The notes under the pieces: generated by a model
Database searches by the model: none
What the model was told of the DNA's origin: nothing
Seen by the model: only the letters and a program-made list of their open reading frames with translations
From: a virus
DNA length: 36,442 nucleotides
Direction: 5' to 3' (one strand)
Virus record (IMG/VR): IMGVR_UViG_3300032278_004267
Coordinates: 1-36,442 of that record
Position numbers and translations under genes: made by a program
In this document: positions 1 through 11,877 of the stretch, piece after piece
Layout: each line of letters begins with the position of its first letter
Position numbering within the stretch: the stretch's first letter is position 1

Positions 1-1017
1 ATGACCGCTCTGCGCATCTACTCGCCCGACTCTCCCACCTTTGCCACAACCCGAGTAACGCCGCCGGCCAACTGGCCGGCACCAACGCTGCGGCAAATCT
101 TCGACCAGCATGTGCGGCCGGAGCTGCAGCAGCACGCACCGAAAACGATCGAGGAATACGAGTCGCTTCTCAACGATTGGGAACGGCTCACCGGCAACCC
201 ACCAGCGAGCGAGCTCTCGCGGTCAACGCTGGTGGAATTCCGCGAGCAGCTGCGGCAGGAGAAGTTCCGCCGCAGCAAGATCTCGACGCCGCGACTGCGA
301 TCGCCGGCGACGATCAACAAGAAGTTTCGGACGCTCTTTCCGCTGATCCGGCTCTGCTGGCCGAAGGATTCGCACAATCCCGGCGGGCTCGGTCTCTGCG
401 ACTACTTCCCGCTACCGAAGCGGCTCAAGGAGGAGCAGAAACTGCCGTTCGTCTTCTCGCACGAGGAGCTCGATCGACTGTACGACGCCGCCGGCTCGGC
501 CAGCTGGCCGGCACGGAATGCGGCGATCATCTGGCGGACGATCTTTGTGCTCCACTATTCGACCGGACCGAGGACTTACGATCTGCTCGGCCTCGAGTGG
601 AGCGACATCGATCTCGAGTTCGGGCCGTTCGGTGCGGTCTCATTCCAGGCCAGCAAGACGGGCAAGCTGCAGCGAATTCCGTTGAATCGCAGCACGCGAG
701 CACACCTCGATCAGCTGCGAAAGAGCAGCCGCTCGAAACGTCTCTTTCCTCGGTTCGACTATTCGAACCGATCGACGATTCTGCGCAACTGGCGGCAGCT
801 GCGGGCGGCGGCTGCTCTGCCGGAGCGAGCACGCATGGAGGACTTTCGGAAGACCTGCAACACGGCCTACGAGGATCTAAGCCGGGGCGTCGGCGAGTGG
901 ATCCTCGGCCATCGGCTCGGCGGCGTCAACGCGCAGAACTACTACAACCCGACGAACAAAGTGCTCGACGCCGTGCTCGCGCTGCCGCTGCCGTCGCGGT
1001 TCCGGTCGCTCGACTGA
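1..1017 (+). CDS. int: Tyrosine recombinase (phage integrase)
   Basis: Site-specific recombinase expected to integrate and excise the prophage at a tRNA gene. The 338-residue protein has the usual two-domain layout: an N-terminal SAM-like DNA-binding region (about 28-125) and a C-terminal catalytic domain (about 150-335). Visible catalytic candidates are R191 in the GPRTYDLLGL segment, K219 in SKTGK, R283 in the DFRKT segment, H304 in LGHRLGG and Y314 or Y315 in QNYYNP. The box II motif, normally HxxR, reads E280-D-F-R283, so the first histidine is replaced by glutamate. The gene sits next to the inferred attL and reads away from it into the phage. A hairpin terminator follows at 1062. Upstream regulation lies outside the window. 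Confidence 0.93.
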   Translation: MTALRIYSPDSPTFATTRVTPPANWPAPTLRQIFDQHVRPELQQHAPKTIEEYESLLNDWERLTGNPPASELSRSTLVEFREQLRQEKFRRSKISTPRLRSPATINKKFRTLFPLIRLCWPKDSHNPGGLGLCDYFPLPKRLKEEQKLPFVFSHEELDRLYDAAGSASWPARNAAIIWRTIFVLHYSTGPRTYDLLGLEWSDIDLEFGPFGAVSFQASKTGKLQRIPLNRSTRAHLDQLRKSSRSKRLFPRFDYSNRSTILRNWRQLRAAAALPERARMEDFRKTCNTAYEDLSRGVGEWILGHRLGGVNAQNYYNPTNKVLDAVLALPLPSRFRSLD

Positions 1018-1098: not shown

Positions 1099-1123
1099 CG
1101 TTGCGCCTGTGGCATGGACGTCT

Positions 1124-1197
1124 CGCGGGATGGAGCAGCCAGGTTAGCTCGCGGGGCTCATTACCCCGAGACGCCGGTTCAAATCCGGCTCCCGCCA
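1124..1197 (+). tRNA. tRNA-fMet(CAU), phage-borne initiator-type
   Basis: Full cloverleaf of 74 nt without encoded CCA. Acceptor stem 1124-1130 pairs with 1190-1196 except for a C1-C72 mismatch; the D-arm stem is GAGC/GCTC. The anticodon stem CGGGG/CCCCG encloses loop CTCATTA with anticodon CAT, and the T-arm is GCCGG-TTCAAAT-CCGGC; A73 is at 1197. The unpaired 1:72 position and three consecutive G-C pairs at the base of the anticodon stem are hallmarks of bacterial initiator tRNA, so this is fMet rather than elongator Met or Ile-lysidine tRNA. It lies inside the prophage between the integrase terminator and the first small gene. It is intact, so it is not an attachment-site fragment. It could supplement initiation or be captured host DNA. 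Confidence 0.93.
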
Positions 1198-1205
1198 TTT
1201 CTCAC

Positions 1206-2200: not shown

Positions 2201-2455
2201 ATGATGGAAACAATCGAACAAGCCGCCGATCGGCATATCGGTGAATCGATCGAGCAACTGCAGGCGAGCAGTCGAGGGCGCAAGGCGCTCGCCAATCTGC
2301 GGGCCTGGCTCGAAGACGACTGCCTGATCGGCCTCGACTGCCGCAACCAGGAGGCCGTTAGCTTCCTGCTCGTGCAACTGTGGGGAGGCCGGACCGGAGC
2401 GGCGAGCGAGGCCATCCGCAATGCGACGGGCGAGCCGGAAGCGGTGCCGCGATGA
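2201..2455 (+). CDS. Hypothetical small acidic phage protein (84 aa)
   Basis: The start may be ATG 2201 or the adjacent ATG 2204. A purine-rich GGAAAG lies about 13-19 nt upstream. The product is predominantly alpha-helical and acidic, with a leucine/alanine-rich middle (QLQASSRGRKALANLRAWLEDD). It could be a small DNA- or protein-binding accessory factor, but no family is recognised. Its stop at 2455 overlaps an ATG at 2452 that opens an in-frame N-terminal extension of csrA; that extension is judged non-coding. The 76-nt gap upstream contains a GGTGAT/ATCACC inverted repeat that might be an operator. Confidence 0.65.
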   Translation: MMETIEQAADRHIGESIEQLQASSRGRKALANLRAWLEDDCLIGLDCRNQEAVSFLLVQLWGGRTGAASEAIRNATGEPEAVPR

Positions 2456-2464
2456 CGCAGACAA

Positions 2465-2488
2465 CCCTGCGGCAGTGGAGCCGCAGGG
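2465..2488 (+). promoter_or_regulatory. Hairpin presenting GGA in its loop, upstream of csrA
   Basis: Perfect 9-bp stem CCCTGCGGC (2465-2473) / GCCGCAGGG (2480-2488) closing a 6-nt loop AGTGGA. CsrA/RsmA proteins prefer GGA exposed in a hairpin loop. Two more GGA triplets (2565-2567, 2569-2571) lie in and next to the csrA Shine-Dalgarno. The set resembles a CsrA autoregulatory leader, in which a dimer bridges an upstream hairpin and the ribosome-binding site. No binding has been shown. Confidence 0.5.
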
Positions 2489-2577
2489 CGTCGGCCGACC
2501 TGGTGCGAATGCCCATCGACGCCAGGTCGAGCCGACAAACTTTCAAGAATGAAAACTCGATCAAGGAAGGAGCAGAA

Positions 2578-2826
2578 ATGCTCGTTTTATCACGGAAGCA
2601 ACACGAACGGATTTCGGTCACACTCGGCGGTCAACTGCTGTGGGTCTCGATCGTCGCGATACGCGGCGACAAGGTCCGTCTCGGCTTCGAAGCGCCGGCC
2701 GATGCTCTGATTCACCGCGAGGAAATCTGGATCCAGATCCAGGACGCCGCCGCAGCAGCTGCGGCGGTTCCCGCTGATCCAGAAACGACACCGACCACGA
2801 CACCAGACGCGAAAGCGATCGCATGA
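2578..2826 (+). CDS. csrA: CsrA-family RNA-binding translational regulator
   Basis: Phage homologue of the carbon storage regulator, a small dimeric protein that binds GGA motifs near ribosome-binding sites and represses or stabilises mRNAs. Residues 1-56 match the family: an MLVLSRK start, then a GDKVRLGFEAPADALIHREEI segment containing the conserved V-R-L-G-F-x-A-P core. A 26-residue Ala/Pro/Thr tail follows, giving 82 aa against about 60-75 in typical CsrA. The start at 2578 is set by AAGGAG (2567-2572) and by the universal CsrA N-terminus; a longer in-frame start at 2452 is unlikely. The stop overlaps the start of the replication gene (ATGA), so the two are translationally coupled. Autoregulation is suggested by upstream GGA sites. 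Targets could be phage or host mRNAs. Confidence 0.92.
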   Translation: MLVLSRKQHERISVTLGGQLLWVSIVAIRGDKVRLGFEAPADALIHREEIWIQIQDAAAAAAAVPADPETTPTTTPDAKAIA

Positions 2827-4004: not shown

Positions 4005-4468
4005 AGACAAACAGAAATAGACACTACCGCCAACTGCTCGAGCGCGAGGGGATTCGGGCTGAGGTGTTCGACGAGGTCGAGCTCGAGCTGATGGGGAATC
4101 GGATCGACGAGATCGCGGCCAGGATCGACGCGCCGGTGCTGAGTGTGATCAGCGCGATCGGAGCTCTGCACGCCGCCGGCCGGCGGTCCGGATTCGGATC
4201 CGCCGAGGAACTGCAGGACATCGCGACGCAGATCGCCGACACCGTGTTCAAGTACGAGGCCGGCGAGAACGGAGCGCTCACGCAGGCCAACGAGACCAAG
4301 GCCTGGTTAGAGCAGCGGATCCGCGAGGCGATCACAACGGCAGCGCAGCGAGTCGTCGAAAGCCTGTTCGTCGATGGGGCGGGGCGACGGGCCGCTCGGG
4401 ACAAGGTCGAGAAGATCCTGCAGCTCGAGCTGCTCAAGCCGCTACGGGAACGGGGGGCGTATGAGTGA
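4001..4468 (+). CDS. Hypothetical phage protein (155 aa), helical
   Basis: The ATG at 4001 overlaps the stop of the initiator-like gene (ATGA), with AGGGAG at 3986-3991 as ribosome-binding site. The product is almost entirely alpha-helical by composition, rich in Glu, Arg, Ala and Leu, with a heptad-like C-terminal half (about 85-150), so it may form a coiled coil or oligomer. No catalytic motif is visible. It lies between the replication gene and a small membrane protein in the same operon, so a role in early functions (replication accessory) is possible but unproven. It was not matched to a known family. Confidence 0.75.
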   Translation: MKTNRNRHYRQLLEREGIRAEVFDEVELELMGNRIDEIAARIDAPVLSVISAIGALHAAGRRSGFGSAEELQDIATQIADTVFKYEAGENGALTQANETKAWLEQRIREAITTAAQRVVESLFVDGAGRRAARDKVEKILQLELLKPLRERGAYE

Positions 4469-4667
4469 CGAACCACGGCAGCGGGCGGCGAAGCTCGGCC
4501 GGCTCGCTCTGCTGCTCGTCGCGCTGGTCTATGCCGGCGTCGTCGCCGGCTCGTTTGTCTATCAGAACGGCTACGCCGACGGCCAGTTCGACGCGAAACG
4601 AATGTATGAAAACGCAGTCGATGAACTGCGCGAAACCTACGAAAGGAAACTCGCCGACCATGAATAA
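4461..4667 (+). CDS. Small single-pass membrane protein (68 aa)
   Basis: Starts at ATG 4461, overlapping the previous stop by 8 nt; there is a G-rich stretch upstream as ribosome-binding site. Residues 1-14 are polar and positively charged, residues about 15-34 form one hydrophobic transmembrane helix (LALLLVALVYAGVVAGSFVY), and the remainder is an acidic, helical tail. The positive-inside pattern predicts N-in, C-out topology. It ends inside the methyltransferase start region. Being in one operon with a methyltransferase and glycosyltransferases, it could anchor or help that pathway at the membrane. A superinfection-exclusion or lysis role cannot be excluded. Confidence 0.7.
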   Translation: MSDEPRQRAAKLGRLALLLVALVYAGVVAGSFVYQNGYADGQFDAKRMYENAVDELRETYERKLADHE

Positions 4668-5211
4668 GCACAACATTCTCACGAGGGCCGAACGCTACAA
4701 CGGCTATATGTCACGCGACGAACTCGAGTGGCTCGTCGATCGAGCAACCGAGACGACGGCCGGCTGCCGCTGGTGCGAGATCGGCGTGCTGCACGGTCGC
4801 TCCCTGGTGGCCGTCGGTCTGGCGATGCTCGGTCGCTCGACGCTGGTCTCGATCGATCTGCGGTGGGGATCTCAGGAGTCGGCCGGCCTGACGGCTCACA
4901 ACGCGTTCGCCGAGATCGCCTGGCAGAATCCGCACCTGCAGCTCGTCGCGCAGAAAGCCGACTCGGCCGCCGCCGCCGGCCTGTATGCCGACGAGCTGTT
5001 CGACGTCGTGTTCATCGACGGAGCGCACGAGCTCGAGGCGGTGCGGCGGGATCTCGCAGCGTGGATGCCGAAACTCAAGCCGGGCGGACTGCTCGCCGGG
5101 CACGACTTCAAGACCTGGCCGGGCGTGACGCAGGCCGTAAAGGAGATCGTGCCGGCGGCCGAGAATCCGGCCGGCTCGATCTGGTGCTGGCGGAAAGGGG
5201 AGTCGCATTGA
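4660..5211 (+). CDS. SAM-dependent methyltransferase (class I, Methyltransf_24-like)
   Basis: Predicted to move a methyl group from S-adenosylmethionine to an unknown acceptor, probably a sugar or small molecule in view of its neighbours. The 183-aa protein shows the class I Rossmann pattern: motif I CEIGVLHG (39-46), acidic residue D66 after strand 2, D101 in the third segment, and DVVFIDGAHE (115-124) as the strand-4 motif, followed by a PGGLLAGHDF segment (141-150). It lacks the target-recognition features of DNA methyltransferases. Its start overlaps the previous gene by 8 nt and its stop overlaps the TTG start of the next glycosyltransferase, which implies coupled expression. The combination suggests methylated glycan synthesis. 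Confidence 0.82.
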   Translation: MNKHNILTRAERYNGYMSRDELEWLVDRATETTAGCRWCEIGVLHGRSLVAVGLAMLGRSTLVSIDLRWGSQESAGLTAHNAFAEIAWQNPHLQLVAQKADSAAAAGLYADELFDVVFIDGAHELEAVRRDLAAWMPKLKPGGLLAGHDFKTWPGVTQAVKEIVPAAENPAGSIWCWRKGESH

Positions 5212-6092
5212 AACTGGCTCTCGTGACCTGTCATTTCAACCCGCAGAACTATCAGCAGCAGCGGGTCAATTATTTCCGATTCCGCGAGCAGCTCGGCCGG
5301 CCACTGACGACGGTCGAGCTCTCATTCTCCGGCGACTTCGCGATCGACGACTCGATCCGGATCCGGGGATTCCGCAACCTGCACGCGCTCTGGCAGAAGG
5401 AGCGGCTGCTCAATATCGCGATCGGTGCTCTGCCGGATCGGTTCGACGCCGTCGCTTGGCTCGACGCCGACCTGGTGTTTCTCAATCCCAACTGGTACCG
5501 CGACACGATCGCGGCGCTCGAGCAGTATCCGATCGTCCAAATGGCCGAGCGGATCCATCACACCGACCGCAGTTTCGCGATCGAGGCCGACCGCACGCTT
5601 GAGACGTTCGGCTGGTCGCAGGTGCACGCCGACAAAGTGCCGGCGGGAAAGTGGTATCACACTGGGTTCGCGTGGGCAGCAACTCGAGACGCGATCAGCG
5701 AGGGGCTGTGGGATCTCGACATCCTCGGCGGCGGCGATGCGGCGATGGCGTTCGCCTGGACCGGATCGCCGGACAAATGGACCACTCGCTATCGATCGCC
5801 AGGGCAACCCGACTGCCCACTGCGGCGGACGTTCATCCGCTGGGCAGAACGCAACGGACCGCGAGCCGGCCGTCGAGTCGGCTACGTTCCCGGCGAGATC
5901 GTGCACCTGTGGCACGGCGACAAAGCAAACCGAAAATACGTCGAGCGGACGCAGCTGCTGATCGATCAGCAGTTCGATCCCGAAACTGATCTGCAGGCCA
6001 GCTCGGCGGGCCTGTGGGAATGGACCGGCAGCAAGCCGCAGCTGCAGGCCGATGTGCTCGAGTACTTCGCGGCGCGACGGGAGGATGGTTGA
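5208..6092 (+). CDS. Glycosyltransferase, GT-A type with DxD (294 aa)
   Basis: The TTG at 5208 is taken as start: a good purine-rich site (GAAAGGGGAG, 5192-5201) precedes it, and the resulting N-terminus (KLALVTCHFNP) aligns with that of the gene at 6926. The nucleotide-sugar site DxD is D86-A-D88 within AWLDADLVFLNP. A C-terminal IVHLWHGDKANRKY segment, with a histidine probably contributing to metal or substrate binding, is also shared with the 6926 product. The two enzymes are therefore paralogues flanking a different transferase. No membrane segment is seen. It may glycosylate a host surface polymer, a virion protein or modified bases; acceptor unknown. The frame is open further upstream, but that part only shadows the methyltransferase. 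Confidence 0.82.
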   Translation: MKLALVTCHFNPQNYQQQRVNYFRFREQLGRPLTTVELSFSGDFAIDDSIRIRGFRNLHALWQKERLLNIAIGALPDRFDAVAWLDADLVFLNPNWYRDTIAALEQYPIVQMAERIHHTDRSFAIEADRTLETFGWSQVHADKVPAGKWYHTGFAWAATRDAISEGLWDLDILGGGDAAMAFAWTGSPDKWTTRYRSPGQPDCPLRRTFIRWAERNGPRAGRRVGYVPGEIVHLWHGDKANRKYVERTQLLIDQQFDPETDLQASSAGLWEWTGSKPQLQADVLEYFAARREDG

Positions 6093-6095
6093 ACC

Positions 6096-6929
6096 ATGAC
6101 GAAAATTGATTGCGTGCTGCCGCTGGCGGTGGTCTCACACGACGGCGACGAGATCGCTCGAGCCGAGATTCTGATCGAGTCACTCGAGAAGTTTTTCGAC
6201 CGCGACTCGCTCGGCCGGCTGCTGATCGTCTGCGAGGCCGGCAAGGCTAAAGAAATCCTAGATCGGCTGCTGCCTGGCCGGTCGATTCCGGTCGAGGTGA
6301 TCGACGAGCGGTTCTGGATCGGCCGCGTCGCAACGCCGAAGGGCGTCGTCACCAGCTCGCCGGGATGGTGGCGGCAGCAGCTCGTTAAGCTGGCGGCGGC
6401 CGATCACGTCGCGACCGACTTTTACCTGGTGCTCGACGCCGACGTCGTGCTGCGGAAAGCGGTCTCGTCGGCCGATCTGATACCAGGCGGCCGGGGGCTC
6501 GTGAGTGTGGCACCAAAGTCGATCCATCCGTACTGGTGGAGCGACTCGGCCGCGACGTTGCAACTGCCGCTCGAGTGGACTCAATCAGGGATCAGCGTAA
6601 CGCCGCAGATTCTTTGTCGCGAGATCGTGTGGGCGATCCGTCACCGGCTTCACAAGGTCCACGGCGGCGAATGGCTCGATGTGCTCGCCGCGACGCATCG
6701 CTGGACCGAGTTCACGTTGTACGATCTGACGGCTCGGCATTCCGGACTGTTCGATCGCCGACACGAGGTCGGCTGGATGACGGATCCGGCTTGCAATCTG
6801 TACCGGAACGGCGATCGCGAGCGGTGGGCGTTCCGACGCAATGCGAACGGGTTTTTCACGATCATTCAAAGCAACTCCGGAATCACGCCGGCCGAGGTCC
6901 GTCGAAAGATCGGGGGGCTGCTCGCATGA
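6096..6929 (+). CDS. Glycosyltransferase-like protein, DUF6492 type (277 aa)
   Basis: Starts at ATG 6096 with GGGAGGATGG (from 6079) upstream and only 3 nt after the previous stop. The sequence contains a GWWRQQLVKLAAADHVATDF segment (90-109) followed by LVLDADVVL with D114 and D116. That arrangement is typical of DUF6492-like GT-A proteins, where the DxD binds metal and nucleotide sugar. An ILCREI-VHGGEW region and a C-terminal SNSGITPAEVR segment follow. It is not a close paralogue of the flanking transferases, so the operon probably builds a glycan of more than one linkage. The stop overlaps the next start by 4 nt. Confidence 0.75.
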   Translation: MTKIDCVLPLAVVSHDGDEIARAEILIESLEKFFDRDSLGRLLIVCEAGKAKEILDRLLPGRSIPVEVIDERFWIGRVATPKGVVTSSPGWWRQQLVKLAAADHVATDFYLVLDADVVLRKAVSSADLIPGGRGLVSVAPKSIHPYWWSDSAATLQLPLEWTQSGISVTPQILCREIVWAIRHRLHKVHGGEWLDVLAATHRWTEFTLYDLTARHSGLFDRRHEVGWMTDPACNLYRNGDRERWAFRRNANGFFTIIQSNSGITPAEVRRKIGGLLA

Positions 6930-7642
6930 AACTCGCAGTCGTTTCTTGTGTGTTCGATCTCGAGCGGGATCCGCGACGCCTGGCGAACTACCAGGCGTTC
7001 GCGCGGCAGCTCGAGCAGCTGCCGTTCTTTCTGATCGAGGGCCGCCGCAGCGAGTCACACGACTGGCCGAAGGAGCGACTGCTCAACGAGCAGCTCGAGC
7101 AGCTGCCGGCCGAGTTCGACGCGGTCGCCTGGATCGACGCCGACGTGCTGTTTCTCAATCCGGACTGGTACCAGGCGACCGTCGAGCAGCTGCAGCGGTT
7201 TCCGGTCGTGCAGATGTTCGAGCTCGCTCACTGGATCAACCAGGCCGGCCAGATCGAACGCCAGTTCGATAGCTCGGCCAGGGTCGGCGGATGTTTCGAG
7301 GCGGGCGATCGATTCGGGCACTGCGGTTTCGCGTGGGCAGCTCGTCGCGAGATCCTCGAACAATGCGGCGGGCTGTTCGACCAGGATCAAACCGGGTTCG
7401 GCGATGCGTGGATGGCTCACGCGTTTTACAACGAGCGCCGCACGCGGATCATGCGGGCGGCCGCTCCGGAGCTCCGGACCGCGGCGCTCGCCTGGTGCGA
7501 TCGCTATCGGCGAGCCGTCGGCCAGGGATCCGTCGGCTGCACGCCGGGGCACCTGGTGCACCTGTGGCACGGCGACTACCGAGACCGGCGATATTTCGAG
7601 CGGTTTCTCGACGAGCAGCGGCGGCGGATGCGTAGCTCTTGA
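6926..7642 (+). CDS. Glycosyltransferase, GT-A type, paralogue of the 5208 gene (238 aa)
   Basis: ATG 6926 overlaps the previous stop (ATGA). The protein begins MKLAVVSCVFD and has DAVAWIDADVLFLNP with the DxD at D71/D73. It contains a HCGFAWAARREI segment matching HTGFAWAATRDA of the 5208 product, and a closing LVHLWHGDYRDRRY. It is shorter than its paralogue because of a shorter middle and C-terminus. It is the last gene of the early operon: GC content falls right after it and about 320 nt without a gene follow, marking the boundary to the IetAS-like cargo. Likely partner with the methyltransferase and two other transferases in making or attaching a glycan. Confidence 0.82.
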   Translation: MKLAVVSCVFDLERDPRRLANYQAFARQLEQLPFFLIEGRRSESHDWPKERLLNEQLEQLPAEFDAVAWIDADVLFLNPDWYQATVEQLQRFPVVQMFELAHWINQAGQIERQFDSSARVGGCFEAGDRFGHCGFAWAARREILEQCGGLFDQDQTGFGDAWMAHAFYNERRTRIMRAAAPELRTAALAWCDRYRRAVGQGSVGCTPGHLVHLWHGDYRDRRYFERFLDEQRRRMRSS

Positions 7643-7965
7643 ATCAGGTTCCACAGCTTATTCGGAGTGAAACCGAACCACCACAAACAACGTTTCCCAC
7701 CATGAACAGATTTGCCGTACGGACTCCAGTCGGCAATGTCAGAAACTACACAACTCACTTCAGTCAATGTATTTGCGACAATATTTTTCGGAAAATACGA
7801 AACGCAATCTCAAGTTCCTTCAATGTTGGGGGGGCTCGGTTCTATGATGAAATGAAGAGTTACCGTTTCGCTCAGGGCGAAACCGGCGATCATTTTTTGG
7901 CCAATGGCAGGCCAGAATGCCGAAATTCGTAATGGGACGTAATTGGATCTCCCAGTGGGCCAAGG
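7643..7965. other. Lower-GC intergenic segment at the cargo boundary
   Basis: No convincing gene. GC content drops compared with the glycosyltransferase operon. It holds the repeated hairpin at 7860-7883, a second hairpin TGGCC-AATGGCA-GGCCA near 7898-7914, and a weak promoter-like pair TTGCGA (7773) and TACGAA (7796) with 17-bp spacing. The AAA ATPase promoter must lie here or the module reads through from upstream. A 97-codon open frame from a TTG at 7639 lacks coding character. Confidence 0.55.
7860..7883 (+). repeat. Hairpin repeat, second copy of the 1030 element
   Basis: TTACCGTTTCGC (7860-7871) is identical to 1030-1041. The arm GTTTCGC (7865-7871) pairs with GCGAAAC (7877-7883) around a 5-nt loop. 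It lies about 100 nt before the AAA ATPase gene. The loop sequence differs from copy one while the stem is kept, which suggests the structure matters or that both derive from a small mobile or regulatory module. Confidence 0.55.
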
Positions 7966-8979
7966 ATGGCAGGGCAGGGTAAGCAGATGAACGCCGATAT
8001 TTTAAAGCGACTCGTTCGAGCCATTGGAGAGGGCTCCCCCGAAGACCTTGACTCGCTTGCTCGTAAAATCGTCGAAGCCGAGAGGAAAGTTGGGCACACG
8101 AAACTCGCGGGTCAGTTGGAGTCGATTCTTCACAGAGCGAAGGATTCGAGATCTCCAAATTCAGCCTCTTCAACTCGTTCGCTTGAAAGCCTGCCGACCA
8201 GTCGACGTCACGGCGAATCCTTACTTACCTTGGTGCCGCGTGAATCTCTCGAGCACCACATGGTTCTGCCTAAGGATGTCGAAGCTCGTTTCTTGCGAAT
8301 CGAAAGGGAATACGCCGCGCGTGAGAGGCTCGGAGCCTACGGACTTCATCCTCGAAAGACCGTTTTGCTTTACGGCCCTCCTGGTTGCGGTAAGTCTTTA
8401 GGAGCGAAACGCCTAGCGTGGAATGTTGGTCTGCCATTGCTCAAAGTCCGTTTTGACGCTCTCGTCTCATCGTTTTTCGGTGAATCTGCGAGCAACCTCA
8501 GATCTGTGTTTGATGCGGCACGGGAACGGCCTTGTGTGTTGTTACTCGACGAATGCGACTTCATCGCACGTTCCAGGGTGAATTCGAAAGACATTGGAGA
8601 GGTTGCTCGTATCGTCAACTCTCTGCTCACCCTGATGGAGGAATACGACGCCCCGGGCCTGCTCGTCGCCACCACAAATATCGAAGACTCGCTTGACCCA
8701 GCTTTATTTCGTCGCTTTGATGACGTGTTCATGGTGCCACCTCCGGGGCCTACTGAGATTGCTCAACTGTTGAAGGTACGGCTCTCGGCACTATCTGTCT
8801 CTAAAGACGTGAGATGGGAATCGATCGTCGCATCCTTAGAAGGGTATTCCGCAGCCATGGTTGTGAAGGCTGCCGAAGATGCGGCGAAAGAGGCTGTACT
8901 TGCTGGAGACAAAACAATCACAGAATCGTCGCTTCGACGGGCCGTTGACGAACTCAAAGGGGCTGGAGAGGCACAATAG
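7966..8979 (+). CDS. AAA ATPase, IetA-like component of a two-gene defence module
   Basis: Single-domain AAA+ ATPase of 337 aa (330 aa if ATG 7987 is the true start; neither has a strong ribosome-binding site). Residues 1-110 are a helical, charged N-terminal region. The core has Walker A GPPGCGKS (137-144), Walker B VLLLDECD with D195/E196, sensor 1 ATTN, and an RRFD segment with candidate arginine fingers. It resembles the FtsH/ClpX-like AAA proteins paired with subtilisin-like proteases in IetAS. The protease gene begins 11 nt after its stop. By analogy the ATPase would sense or remodel a target and gate the protease. Codon use is less GC-rich than in phage core genes, a sign of separate acquisition. 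Confidence 0.87.
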   Translation: MAGQGKQMNADILKRLVRAIGEGSPEDLDSLARKIVEAERKVGHTKLAGQLESILHRAKDSRSPNSASSTRSLESLPTSRRHGESLLTLVPRESLEHHMVLPKDVEARFLRIEREYAARERLGAYGLHPRKTVLLYGPPGCGKSLGAKRLAWNVGLPLLKVRFDALVSSFFGESASNLRSVFDAARERPCVLLLDECDFIARSRVNSKDIGEVARIVNSLLTLMEEYDAPGLLVATTNIEDSLDPALFRRFDDVFMVPPPGPTEIAQLLKVRLSALSVSKDVRWESIVASLEGYSAAMVVKAAEDAAKEAVLAGDKTITESSLRRAVDELKGAGEAQ

Positions 8980-8990
8980 AAAGTTCTTCG

Positions 8991-11591
8991 ATGGCCTCTC
9001 ACGGATTCGAGCACCTTCCTCTAGTTAGACGTCAACTAGGCGAGGCGAGGCTACACGGTCGCAGTAAGCTCAGCGAGCAGACGTTAAAGAATCGAGCTGA
9101 TCGAGGCGGGCACAGTTCACGACTCCGCAATCAGGCGAATACGGTAAGTCGCGTTTGGCAATCCACTCAGGCTGAACGTAAGGCCGCAAATCTTCCCTCG
9201 CTCGGTAGTGGCATACCCCTCTTGCTTGAGATCGATCCCAAGCTCTCCATTGACAGTCTTCGTCATCACTTTCAGTTTGAGATTGTCTCGGAGCAGGAAG
9301 ATGGTTACGTGATCGTAGCATCGGAAGACCGATCGCTATCTTTCTTCCAAAAAAAGCTTCGGAACTTCGTCGACGAAATCCGAGGTTCCGCGGGGATCGC
9401 TTCCATTCACAGCATTCAGGAAGACCTTTCCCACACGGAACGACTTCGACGAATACTGAGTCCCCGTCTTTTCGAAGAGTTGCCTTCTCTCAATACCACT
9501 CAACCATACATTGTCGATCTGAGTGTGAATTGCGAAGGATGTATTGAAATCCCTCCGGTGCCTAAACGAGGAAAGAGATCAAGTGATCGAGAATGGGCGA
9601 AAAAGCTCGATGTCTGGAATCGGGCCCGTAGTTCCGCATACGAACAGTGGGACCAACTTTGGGAGGACCGAAAGGACACGGTGCGGGAATTCCTTCGGCA
9701 TTATAAGGGCGAGATCCTTAATGACTCGTTCGGCTACAATGAAGATGGCACACTGCCCAACGATTTCCAGATTCGCATCAGGATCTCAGCAATCGGATTG
9801 AAAGATTTAATCTTCAATCATCCGTACATTTTTGAAGTATCAGAACCTGAAGATGTCGAGTTGCCGCAGGCCCACGCGAGACAGCTTCGAGAAGTCGCAG
9901 CTTCGGTTCGAGTTGTTGCACCCGATGCTAATGCCCCCGCTGTTTGCGTCATTGACAGTGGAATTCAAGAAGAGCATATCTTACTCGGTCCCGCGATTGA
10001 TAAGAGCTCATCATTCTGTTTCTTACCAAAGGTTTCGAACAGCGATGTAGCGGATTACGTCGCAAACGGGGGACACGGAACACGTGTTGCGGGTGCCATT
10101 CTCTACGGAGAGTCCATTCCAGAATCAGGCCAATTCATGCCAGAAGCCTGGATTCAGAACGCGAGAATCCTCGATCGCAGAAATCGTCTGCCGCGTACCG
10201 TTCTCCCGTCAGCGTTGCTTCGACGAGTGGTTCTGAAATTTCATACTGGCTCTCGAAGGACGCGGATTTTCAATCATTCGGTGAATTCATCAGACGCCTG
10301 CCGAACTCGGCACATGTCTGGCTGGGCAGCTGAAATCGACAGACTTTGCAATCAATACGATGTTCTGATAATTCAGAGTGTCGGGAACTTGCAACCAAGT
10401 CAACAAGCGCCCTTGCTGGGTATAACTGAGTTGGTAAGCAGTGGTAAGGACTATCCTGATTACTTGAACGAGAGTTGTTGTAGGCTGGCGAATCCATCGC
10501 AAAGCCTGCAGGCTATCACCGTTGGATCCGTCGCATCTGGAGTATTTGAGGACATCGGTTGGAAGAGTTTTGCTCGACAGACAGAGGATATCTCAGCTTT
10601 CAGCCGCAGCGGGTTCGGGATGTGGAACTCGATCAAACCGGATGTCGTCGAGTTCGGGGGCGACTTCCTTCGGACAAGTGGGAATCCACCTAGCGTCGCA
10701 CTTCCACCTCACGCCAGCGATTGTTATCCGAACTTGATTCGTTCTACGATGAATGGAGGTCCGCCCTTTGCTCGCGACATTGTCGGAACGTCGTTCGCAG
10801 CACCAAAGGTGACACGAATCGCAGTCCGATTGCAAAACGTTCTTCCGACTGCTTCGTGCTTATTATACCGTGCGTTGATCATTCAGTCCGCAAGGTGGCC
10901 CGACTGGGCGAGAGGGCTGTCGACTCAGGAAAATGCGGTCGTTATGAGTCGACTCGGTTATGGACGGCCAGACATCGCGCGTGCAACCACGAACGACGAA
11001 TTTAGAACGACTTTCATCTCCGATGATGAACTACAAATTAGGAAGGGAGAGTGCCACATCTTTCAGGTTCCGATTCCACCGCAAGTTCGCCGTGCTGGGT
11101 CGGAATTCGTCATTCTCGTGGAAGTGACTCTTTCCTATTCCGCAGAGACTCGCCGTTCACGTCGATCTCATAGAGGGTATCTTTCTGTTTGGATGGACTG
11201 GACGAGTAATAGGACCGACGAACCACTCGACGCATTCATCTCCCGTGCTATTAAGAGTGACAGTGAAGTTCGAAAGGAAGGAACAACGCTTCCATGGACG
11301 ATCGGTGAACAAGGAAACTCTGGGCAGGTGTCCGGAGTTCGGCGAGGAATAGGTACGGTTCAAAAAGACTGGGCTTATGTACCTTCATCGGCGTTGCCTA
11401 AAGACTTTTGCGTCGCGGTCAGAGGACGTCAAGGTTGGAGCAAAGACCCGGACAGCACAGCGTCCTATGCACTTACCGTATCCTTTGAAATCGTCGGAAA
11501 AGAAATCCCGATCTACGATGCTTTCCGCGTTGAACTCGATGAACTTCAAGAAAGTTTAGAACTCGAAGCTGAGGCGGAGATCGACGACTAA
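8991..11591 (+). CDS. Subtilisin-like S8 serine protease, IetS-like partner
   Basis: 866-aa protein with a central S8 peptidase domain. Catalytic triad: D322 in CVIDSGIQ, H362 in GGHGTRVAG, S601 in GTSFAAP; N428 in FNHSVN is the probable oxyanion residue. The N-terminal ~300 residues are a charged, helical/mixed region without a signal peptide, so the protease should stay in the cytoplasm. A long C-terminal beta-rich part (about 670-850) follows the catalytic serine. This length and layout match IetS-type proteases that are encoded next to an AAA ATPase. IetAS was described as a plasmid stability/incompatibility pair and later as phage defence. Here it would protect the lysogen from competing phages. 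GC content is clearly lower than in flanking phage genes. Confidence 0.88.
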   Translation: MASHGFEHLPLVRRQLGEARLHGRSKLSEQTLKNRADRGGHSSRLRNQANTVSRVWQSTQAERKAANLPSLGSGIPLLLEIDPKLSIDSLRHHFQFEIVSEQEDGYVIVASEDRSLSFFQKKLRNFVDEIRGSAGIASIHSIQEDLSHTERLRRILSPRLFEELPSLNTTQPYIVDLSVNCEGCIEIPPVPKRGKRSSDREWAKKLDVWNRARSSAYEQWDQLWEDRKDTVREFLRHYKGEILNDSFGYNEDGTLPNDFQIRIRISAIGLKDLIFNHPYIFEVSEPEDVELPQAHARQLREVAASVRVVAPDANAPAVCVIDSGIQEEHILLGPAIDKSSSFCFLPKVSNSDVADYVANGGHGTRVAGAILYGESIPESGQFMPEAWIQNARILDRRNRLPRTVLPSALLRRVVLKFHTGSRRTRIFNHSVNSSDACRTRHMSGWAAEIDRLCNQYDVLIIQSVGNLQPSQQAPLLGITELVSSGKDYPDYLNESCCRLANPSQSLQAITVGSVASGVFEDIGWKSFARQTEDISAFSRSGFGMWNSIKPDVVEFGGDFLRTSGNPPSVALPPHASDCYPNLIRSTMNGGPPFARDIVGTSFAAPKVTRIAVRLQNVLPTASCLLYRALIIQSARWPDWARGLSTQENAVVMSRLGYGRPDIARATTNDEFRTTFISDDELQIRKGECHIFQVPIPPQVRRAGSEFVILVEVTLSYSAETRRSRRSHRGYLSVWMDWTSNRTDEPLDAFISRAIKSDSEVRKEGTTLPWTIGEQGNSGQVSGVRRGIGTVQKDWAYVPSSALPKDFCVAVRGRQGWSKDPDSTASYALTVSFEIVGKEIPIYDAFRVELDELQESLELEAEAEIDD

Positions 11592-11627
11592 GGAAGTGTT
11601 CTTCTGCACGCCTAGTTATCGAAATCG

Positions 11628-11659
11628 CTTACGGTGGCTCAAGGATTCTTGAGCGTAAG
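11628..11659. other. Hairpin between convergent gene ends
   Basis: GCTCAAG (11637-11643) pairs with CTTGAGC (11648-11654) around a GATT loop, extended by CTTAC (11628-11632) and GTAAG (11655-11659). It lies where the rightward protease gene and the leftward HTH operon converge and overlaps the last codons of the leftward gene. No T-tract is present on either strand, so termination would be weak or factor-dependent. Confidence 0.45.
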
Positions 11660-11877
11660 AGTCGACCGCCCTTCGTGATGTCAAACCGACCAGGCTCGAG
11701 GCGGTCGGCCAGATCGACCGACCGCAGTCGGGCGATCGCTTTCCGGACTGCTCTCCGGGGCTGTCGGCAATGCTCGGCCACCTGGTCGACGCTGCAGGGG
11801 CCGACGGCGTGCAGCACGCAGAGAACGTGCCGCTGAAAACGGGTCAGAGTCAAGCCGGCCGGCGGTGCGGTGCTCAT
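11629..11877 (-). CDS. Winged-helix DNA-binding protein (82 aa)
   Basis: Small leftward gene, second of a two-gene operon; its ATG directly follows the stop of the upstream HTH gene. Residues about 13-70 form a winged helix: FQRHVLCVLHAVGPCSVDQVAEHC, then RRAVRKAIARLRSVDLADRL as recognition helix, then a short wing (RFDITKGGRLL). This layout resembles MarR/ROK-type or phage wHTH regulators. It is in the only leftward operon of the prophage, next to a divergent control region, so it is a candidate lysogeny or antirepressor regulator. No dimerisation domain is seen beyond the wHTH. The target is not known. Confidence 0.7.
   Translation of the reverse strand: MSTAPPAGLTLTRFQRHVLCVLHAVGPCSVDQVAEHCRQPRRAVRKAIARLRSVDLADRLEPGRFDITKGGRLLRSRILEPP

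What the first reader, a model, noticed from the sequence alone, without database searches (positions are those of the whole stretch)
7966..11591. IetAS-like AAA ATPase + S8 protease defence module carried as prophage cargo
A single-domain AAA ATPase (GPPGCGKS, LLLDECD) is followed after 11 nt by an 866-aa cytoplasmic subtilisin-like protease with intact D322/H362/S601. This organisation is that of IetAS, known as a Ti-plasmid stability/incompatibility pair and reported as an anti-phage system. Here it is a lower-GC insert between the glycosyltransferase operon and the regulator operon of an otherwise intact phage, suggesting a swappable defence locus. Seen: motifs, adjacency, composition shift. 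Inferred: defence role and recent acquisition.
Basis: partly seen in the sequence, partly recalled or inferred. Interest (0 to 1): 0.72.

Follow-up and report, generated by a model that had tools for sequence, protein, structure and literature searches.

The report
Phage-borne IetAS ATPase-protease defence pair
A bacterial virus integrated in its host carries a known two-gene ATPase-protease module (IetAS) that probably protects the host cell from rival phages or stops the virus being lost; the module is an ordinary new member of a known kind, though relatives of this virus seem to swap such modules at preferred spots.

Summary
An AAA ATPase (start more likely 7987 than 7966; end 8979) is followed after 11 nt by an 866-aa subtilase (8991-11591) with intact D322/H362/S601. 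Both are hit specifically by PADLOC IetA and IetS models (6.8e-71, 2.9e-64) and score far below NCBI's equivalog cut-offs, so this is a divergent branch. IetA adjoins IetS in nearly every homologue, and their distance matrices match (r=0.97).

The pair is foreign by composition: GC3 0.50-0.52 against 0.80 in the phage genes, z about -6 to -7. But 21 of 26 IetAS loci are below their flanks, so only part of that argues for recent arrival. In the closest phage found (L008, terminase 75% identical) the same slot between glycosyltransferase and the two regulators holds other small genes and no IetAS.

The same IetAS branch recurs on seven other IMG/VR contigs. In three it lies between terminase and portal, an interval that in relatives also carries AbiE, a TIR-like protein or methyltransferases.

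Phage-carried IetAS is already published. Verdict: correctly read, new member of a known kind. Defence or addiction is inferred, not shown.

The parts
7987..8979 (+). ietA: single AAA+ ATPase domain with an N-terminal three-helix region; putative antitoxin/regulator (annotated start 7966 possible)
   Evidence: PADLOC IetA PDLC02196 6.8e-71; Pfam AAA 2.8e-30; conserved start; fold like PAN/FtsH/p97
8991..11591 (+). ietS: subtilisin-family serine protease, triad D322/H362/S601, no signal peptide evident; putative toxin/effector
   Evidence: PADLOC IetS PDLC02198 2.9e-64; Pfam S8 1.5e-28; conserved triad
7643..11628 (.). variable cargo segment between conserved flanking genes; about 4.0 kb here, about 1.6 kb of other genes in relative L008
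6926..7642 (+). left flank: glycosyltransferase-like gene, 50% identical to the L008 gene at the same position
11629..11877 (-). right flank: small winged-helix-like regulator, 52% identical in L008
11878..12159 (-). right flank: small sigma-70 region 4-like HTH protein, 48% identical in L008
16492..18546 (+). large terminase (shows the phage context); 75% identical in L008
   Evidence: phrog_38 8.9e-35
1..1017 (+). tyrosine integrase (temperate phage)
   Evidence: PF00589 9.3e-11, phrog_1 6.2e-24

Best explanation
An IetAS module carried as accessory cargo by a temperate siphovirus-type prophage, probably of a planctomycete host. IetS is a cytoplasmic subtilase that is harmful when free; IetA is an AAA unfoldase-type ATPase that holds it in check or directs it. 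When a rival phage disturbs IetA, or when the prophage is lost, IetS becomes unrestrained and cleaves cell proteins, halting growth. The result is superinfection immunity by abortive infection and/or addiction to the prophage. Shown here: gene identity, intact catalytic and Walker motifs, near-obligate pairing, foreign composition, absence from the same slot in the nearest relative. Known from close systems: protease as toxin, ATPase as antitoxin (SgiAT; pTiC58). Inferred: the trigger, the substrates and that this copy is expressed.
For: PADLOC matches to IetA and IetS. IetA next to IetS in 15 of 17 planctomycete loci, the two exceptions being a 110-aa remnant and a contig-end fragment. Mirror correlation of distances r=0.966, permutation p<=0.0005, over 26 pairs. 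Catalytic D/H/N/S conserved. GC3 z -6.4/-7.0. L008 lacks the pair at the same slot and in its whole 28.6-kb record. The same branch is found on other phage contigs and on plasmids. Chromosomal homologues lie beside a cas4-cas1 fusion (L166) and a reverse-transcriptase gene (L156). SgiAT: protease toxic, ATPase antitoxic, stabilises SGI1 (PMC5006074). Pf phage PfAC08 carries IetAS, and carriers were phage resistant (PMC11878078).
Against: NCBIfam equivalog models match well below their cut-offs (208 vs 510 bits; 97 vs 900), so function transfer is across a long distance. No promoter signal above chance. No defence or toxicity data for this branch. One plasmid relative (SH-PL62) has IetS without IetA, and three viral contigs have IetA without IetS, which a strict toxin-antitoxin model does not predict. 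The IetS structure model was too poor to use.
Confidence: 0.62

Rival explanations
1. It is mainly an addiction/stability module: IetS kills cells that lose the prophage, as proposed for pTiC58 and SGI1, and anti-phage protection is incidental.
For: SgiAT keeps SGI1 in the population when an IncA/C plasmid is present and acts as toxin-antitoxin in E. coli. Close relatives lie on plasmids, one directly after repA-parA-parB.
Against: SgiAT gave no post-segregational killing from its own promoter. An integrated prophage has little need of it. Some chromosomal copies sit beside defence genes.
Confidence: 0.27
2. IetA is an activator, not an inhibitor: it unfolds substrates, perhaps phage proteins, and feeds them to IetS, like a split FtsH- or proteasome-type machine.
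For: IetA folds like PAN, Rpt and FtsH AAA rings; strict co-inheritance; protease and ATPase encoded as a pair with intact motifs.
Against: In SgiAT the ATPase neutralises protease toxicity. Orphan IetA and orphan IetS exist. The IetA model is only moderate (pLDDT 71).
Confidence: 0.25
3. It serves the phage's own life cycle (head maturation or packaging), since related copies lie between terminase and portal.
For: TerL-IetAS-portal order in L137, L138 and L141.
Against: Here the pair is nearly 5 kb away from terminase. L138 and the window already have a prohead protease. Most relatives lack IetAS. The pair also occurs on plasmids and chromosomes.
Confidence: 0.04

Closest known systems
IetAS as modelled in PADLOC (IetA PDLC02196, IetS PDLC02198) and NCBIfam IteA/IteS
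   Same: AAA ATPase followed directly by S8 protease; specific HMM matches to both; intact motifs
   Different: Equivalog cut-offs not reached; IetS 866 aa with about 300 residues before the catalytic domain that the PADLOC match does not cover (starts at residue 307)
SgiAT of Salmonella genomic island 1 (PMC5006074) and ietA/ietS of pTiC58 (Yamamoto 2009, cited there)
   Same: Same gene order, domains and mobile-element setting
   Different: On an integrative island or plasmid; function tested there, not here; the pTi and SGI1 proteins were not aligned here
IetAS of Pseudomonas phage PfAC08 (PMC11878078; OR818368)
   Same: IetAS carried by a prophage beside its regulator/repressor region
   Different: Filamentous phage; IetA about 30%, IetS about 16% identical to the window
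Burkholderia plantarii plasmid bpln_1p pair (L003) and viral contig L136
   Same: Closest relatives: IetA 69-73%, IetS 50-60% identical
   Different: L003 has an upstream XRE-type HTH gene that the window lacks; no composition shift in L003 or L136
Prophage defence hotspots of P2/P4-like phages (PMC9122126)
   Same: Small variable slot between conserved phage genes holding defence systems
   Different: Other phage family and other slot

Membership tests
IetAS | AAA ATPase matching IetA models | tested here: met
   PDLC02196 6.8e-71; the next non-Iet model (TRIP13) only 3.5e-14
IetAS | S8 protease matching IetS models | tested here: met
   PDLC02198 2.9e-64; generic subtilase model only 6.9e-7
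IetAS | ietA immediately upstream of ietS, same strand | tested here: met
   11-nt gap; in the 25 homologous pairs compared the gap is -8 to 33 nt in all but one (212 nt)
IetAS | Intact Walker A/B and protease triad | tested here: met
IetAS | NCBIfam IteA/IteS equivalog cut-offs | tested here: not met
   208.5 of 510 and 97.1 of 900 bits: a divergent branch of IetAS, not the same equivalog; the cut-offs define that equivalog, not the wider family
IetAS | Anti-phage activity | not testable with these tools
   needs phage challenge
Toxin-antitoxin of SgiAT/pTiC58 type | Protease toxic alone, neutralised by ATPase | not testable with these tools
   known for SgiAT
Prophage defence hotspot | Same slot holds different cargo in related phages | tested here: inconclusive
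   one close relative, L008, has different genes in the slot; no second close relative found

The most novel reading that the evidence does not exclude
In the phage group with this terminase, found in planctomycetes and in uncultured hosts, the terminase-portal interval is a hotspot for defence cargo. Its typical length is 0.44 kb; it expands to 1.1-6.8 kb with IetAS, AbiE, a TIR-like protein or methyltransferases. IetAS moves into it repeatedly and, as in this window, into other slots of the same phage group.
Probability: 0.5. Interest if true: 0.42.

Novelty: new member of a known kind. Interest (0 to 1): 0.3.

Why it matters
It adds a divergent, virus-recurrent branch of IetAS in a poorly studied host range, with plasmid, phage and chromosome copies suited to testing whether IetAS is a defence system or an addiction module. 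It also points to phage slots (terminase-portal, and glycosyltransferase-regulator) where unknown defence genes could be sought.

Tried and rejected
Scan of IMG/VR with window IetS alone found nothing; alignments were needed. Scan with the DUF6492 gene found nothing. Scan with the g14740 alignment returned only the same relative. Promoter/terminator scans gave fewer sites than shuffles. Repeats at the module edges are chance-level, and no flanking repeats mark an insertion. No copy of the tRNA-Met end was found elsewhere in the window to define an att site. The IetS structure model (pLDDT 51) and its Foldseek matches (no E<=0.001; viral capsid jelly rolls) were discarded. The secondary-structure order in IetS 73-143 resembles a subtilase propeptide, but Pfam I9 did not hit, so it is not claimed. 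Housekeeping FtsH/PAN/Cdc48 membership was rejected: their NCBIfam cut-offs are missed by far. The Ti plasmid and SGI1 sequences were not fetched. The key Gao 2020 and Yamamoto 2009 papers are not in the library.

Full report
OBSERVATION. Gene 1 is a single AAA domain (PF00004, 2.8e-30) and gene 2 a Peptidase_S8 (PF00082, 1.5e-28). The annotated start of gene 1 is probably 21 nt too far upstream, since all ten viral homologues begin at the residue equal to window 7987. D322, H362, N466 and S601 of the protease are the conserved catalytic residues in every homologue that covers them. This cannot be chance.

SETTING. The window is a complete IMG/VR virus record of 36,442 bases. It begins at an ATG and ends at a stop codon and has no end repeats, which fits a provirus region trimmed at gene borders. 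Integrase, Gam, terminase, portal, head protease, major capsid, tape measure and DNA methyltransferase genes are recognisable. No host is named. Relatives of its terminase occur in planctomycete genomes, among others, and close IetS relatives occur in planctomycetes, so a planctomycete host is likely but not shown.

IDENTITY. PADLOC identifies both proteins as IetA (6.8e-71) and IetS (2.9e-64), with non-Iet models far behind. NCBI's IteA and IteS models hit too but at 41% and 11% of their cut-off scores, so this is a divergent branch. Best relatives are a viral contig (L136: IetA 73%, IetS 60%), a Burkholderia plantarii plasmid (IetA 69-70%, IetS 50-51%) and planctomycete loci. IetA and IetS are inherited as a unit: across 26 pairs their distance matrices correlate at r=0.966 (permutation p<=0.0005). 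In 15 of 17 planctomycete loci IetA directly adjoins IetS, the exceptions being a remnant and a contig-end fragment. 16 of 392 sampled genomes of that phylum have an IetS at E<=1e-20.

CARGO. GC3 of IetA and IetS is 0.523 and 0.497 against a mean of 0.801 (sd 0.043) for 24 other genes, z -6.4 and -7.0. However, IetAS is below its flanks in 21 of 26 loci (median -0.05), so a lower GC is partly typical of the family; the window's -0.12 is among the two largest. Pair GC ranges from 0.34 to 0.68 across loci, so it is not fixed by the proteins, and a lower-GC previous host remains a fair inference. The best comparison is L008 (IMGVR_UViG_3300032255_000018): terminase 75%, capsid 74%, portal 62% identical and the same gene order. 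Between the glycosyltransferase gene and the two minus-strand regulators it carries about 1.6 kb of other small genes and no IetAS, and its whole 28.6-kb record has no IetA. It also lacks Gam between the regulators and the next conserved gene. The slot is thus variable, but from one comparison; further scans with capsid and g14740 alignments found no second close relative.

OTHER PHAGES. The same IetAS branch is on IMG/VR contigs L136-L142, and an IetA fragment at the end of L149. Where terminase and portal are both in the DNA held, the pair lies between them in L137, L138 and L141; the window is the fourth case and differs. L138's terminase is 45% identical to the window's. In 84 terminase-portal pairs measured (duplicates included) the gap is about 0.44 kb at the median; IetAS carriers have 4.5-6.8 kb. 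Other long gaps hold AbiEi-AbiEii (L034/L021; PADLOC 5e-80 and 4e-102), a 1TM-TIR-like protein (L009; 1e-14), a C5-cytosine methyltransferase (L018/L019), an N6-type methyltransferase (L093) or a phosphoesterase (L057). The three IetAS cases were retrieved because they carry IetAS, so their frequency says nothing about the interval as a whole; the AbiE, TIR and methyltransferase cases were retrieved by terminase or capsid and are not biased that way.

MECHANISM. From SgiAT, the protease is toxic and the ATPase its antitoxin, stabilising the element (PMC5006074). In Pseudomonas, Pf phages with IetAS were associated with phage resistance, mechanism unknown (PMC11878078). IetA's predicted fold (pLDDT 71) matches PAN, Rpt, FtsH and p97 AAA domains. 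I therefore favour: IetA restrains or gates the cytoplasmic protease IetS; a competing phage, or loss of the prophage, breaks the restraint; IetS then arrests the cell. Shown: identity, pairing, motifs, mobility. Inferred: trigger, substrates, expression, and the balance of defence against addiction. Chromosomal homologues beside cas4-cas1 (L166) and beside a reverse-transcriptase gene (L156) favour defence; plasmid copies, one beside repA-parA-parB, favour stability.

NOVELTY. IetAS in phages is published and visible in deposited phages such as phiT5282H, Yyerffej and vB_EcoS-683R6. Prophage defence slots are published (PMC9122126). This is a new, divergent member of a known kind. The one thread that may be new is the terminase-portal interval as a defence slot in this phage group; two literature searches did not turn up a description, which is weak evidence.

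Noticed in passing
L137 5661-14627; L138 1890-10243; L141 6797-16852: IetAS sits between large terminase and portal/adaptor genes in three different phages; the interval in relatives also carries AbiE, a TIR-like protein or methyltransferases.
   Followed up: partly
L004 5989-8544 (NZ_CP011275.1): An intact IetS on Planctomyces sp. SH-PL62 plasmid pPL62-2 directly after repA-parA-parB, with no IetA anywhere on the plasmid: a toxin without its antitoxin, or an antitoxin supplied from elsewhere.
   Followed up: partly
L146 9222-10244; L148 10004-11026; L150 10007-11011: IetA-like ATPases (PADLOC IetA 1.3e-79 for L146) with no IetS downstream on three viral contigs: possible solitary antitoxins that could counter a host IetS.
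   Followed up: no
window 2380-2826: A CsrA-type RNA-binding regulator (PF02599, 1.5e-14) encoded by the phage near its left end.
   Followed up: no
window 4465-7642: A run of sugar-modification-type genes: a Methyltransf_24 methyltransferase, two glycosyltransferase-like proteins and a DUF6492 protein; perhaps surface or DNA modification by the prophage.
   Followed up: no
window 1123-1198: A tRNA-Met gene just downstream of the integrase; no second copy of its 3' end in the window, so it is unclear whether it is an attachment site or phage cargo. A direct repeat of about 22 nt lies at 1220 and 1749.
   Followed up: partly
L008 1815-2362: Two small adjacent genes at the slot that IetAS occupies in the window, preceded by an AT-rich palindrome; the first looks by eye like a HicA-type toxin, but no Pfam hit.
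   Followed up: partly
L003 4542-4856; L139 168-482; L138 4213-4674; L140 8656-8925: A small HTH regulator gene directly upstream of ietA in four relatives (XRE type in two, HTH_11 type in two); none was recognised upstream of ietA in the window.
   Followed up: partly
L155 216-3526 (OR818368.1): The GenBank notes of phage PfAC08 swap the names: the ATPase is called IetS and the peptidase IetA.
   Followed up: no
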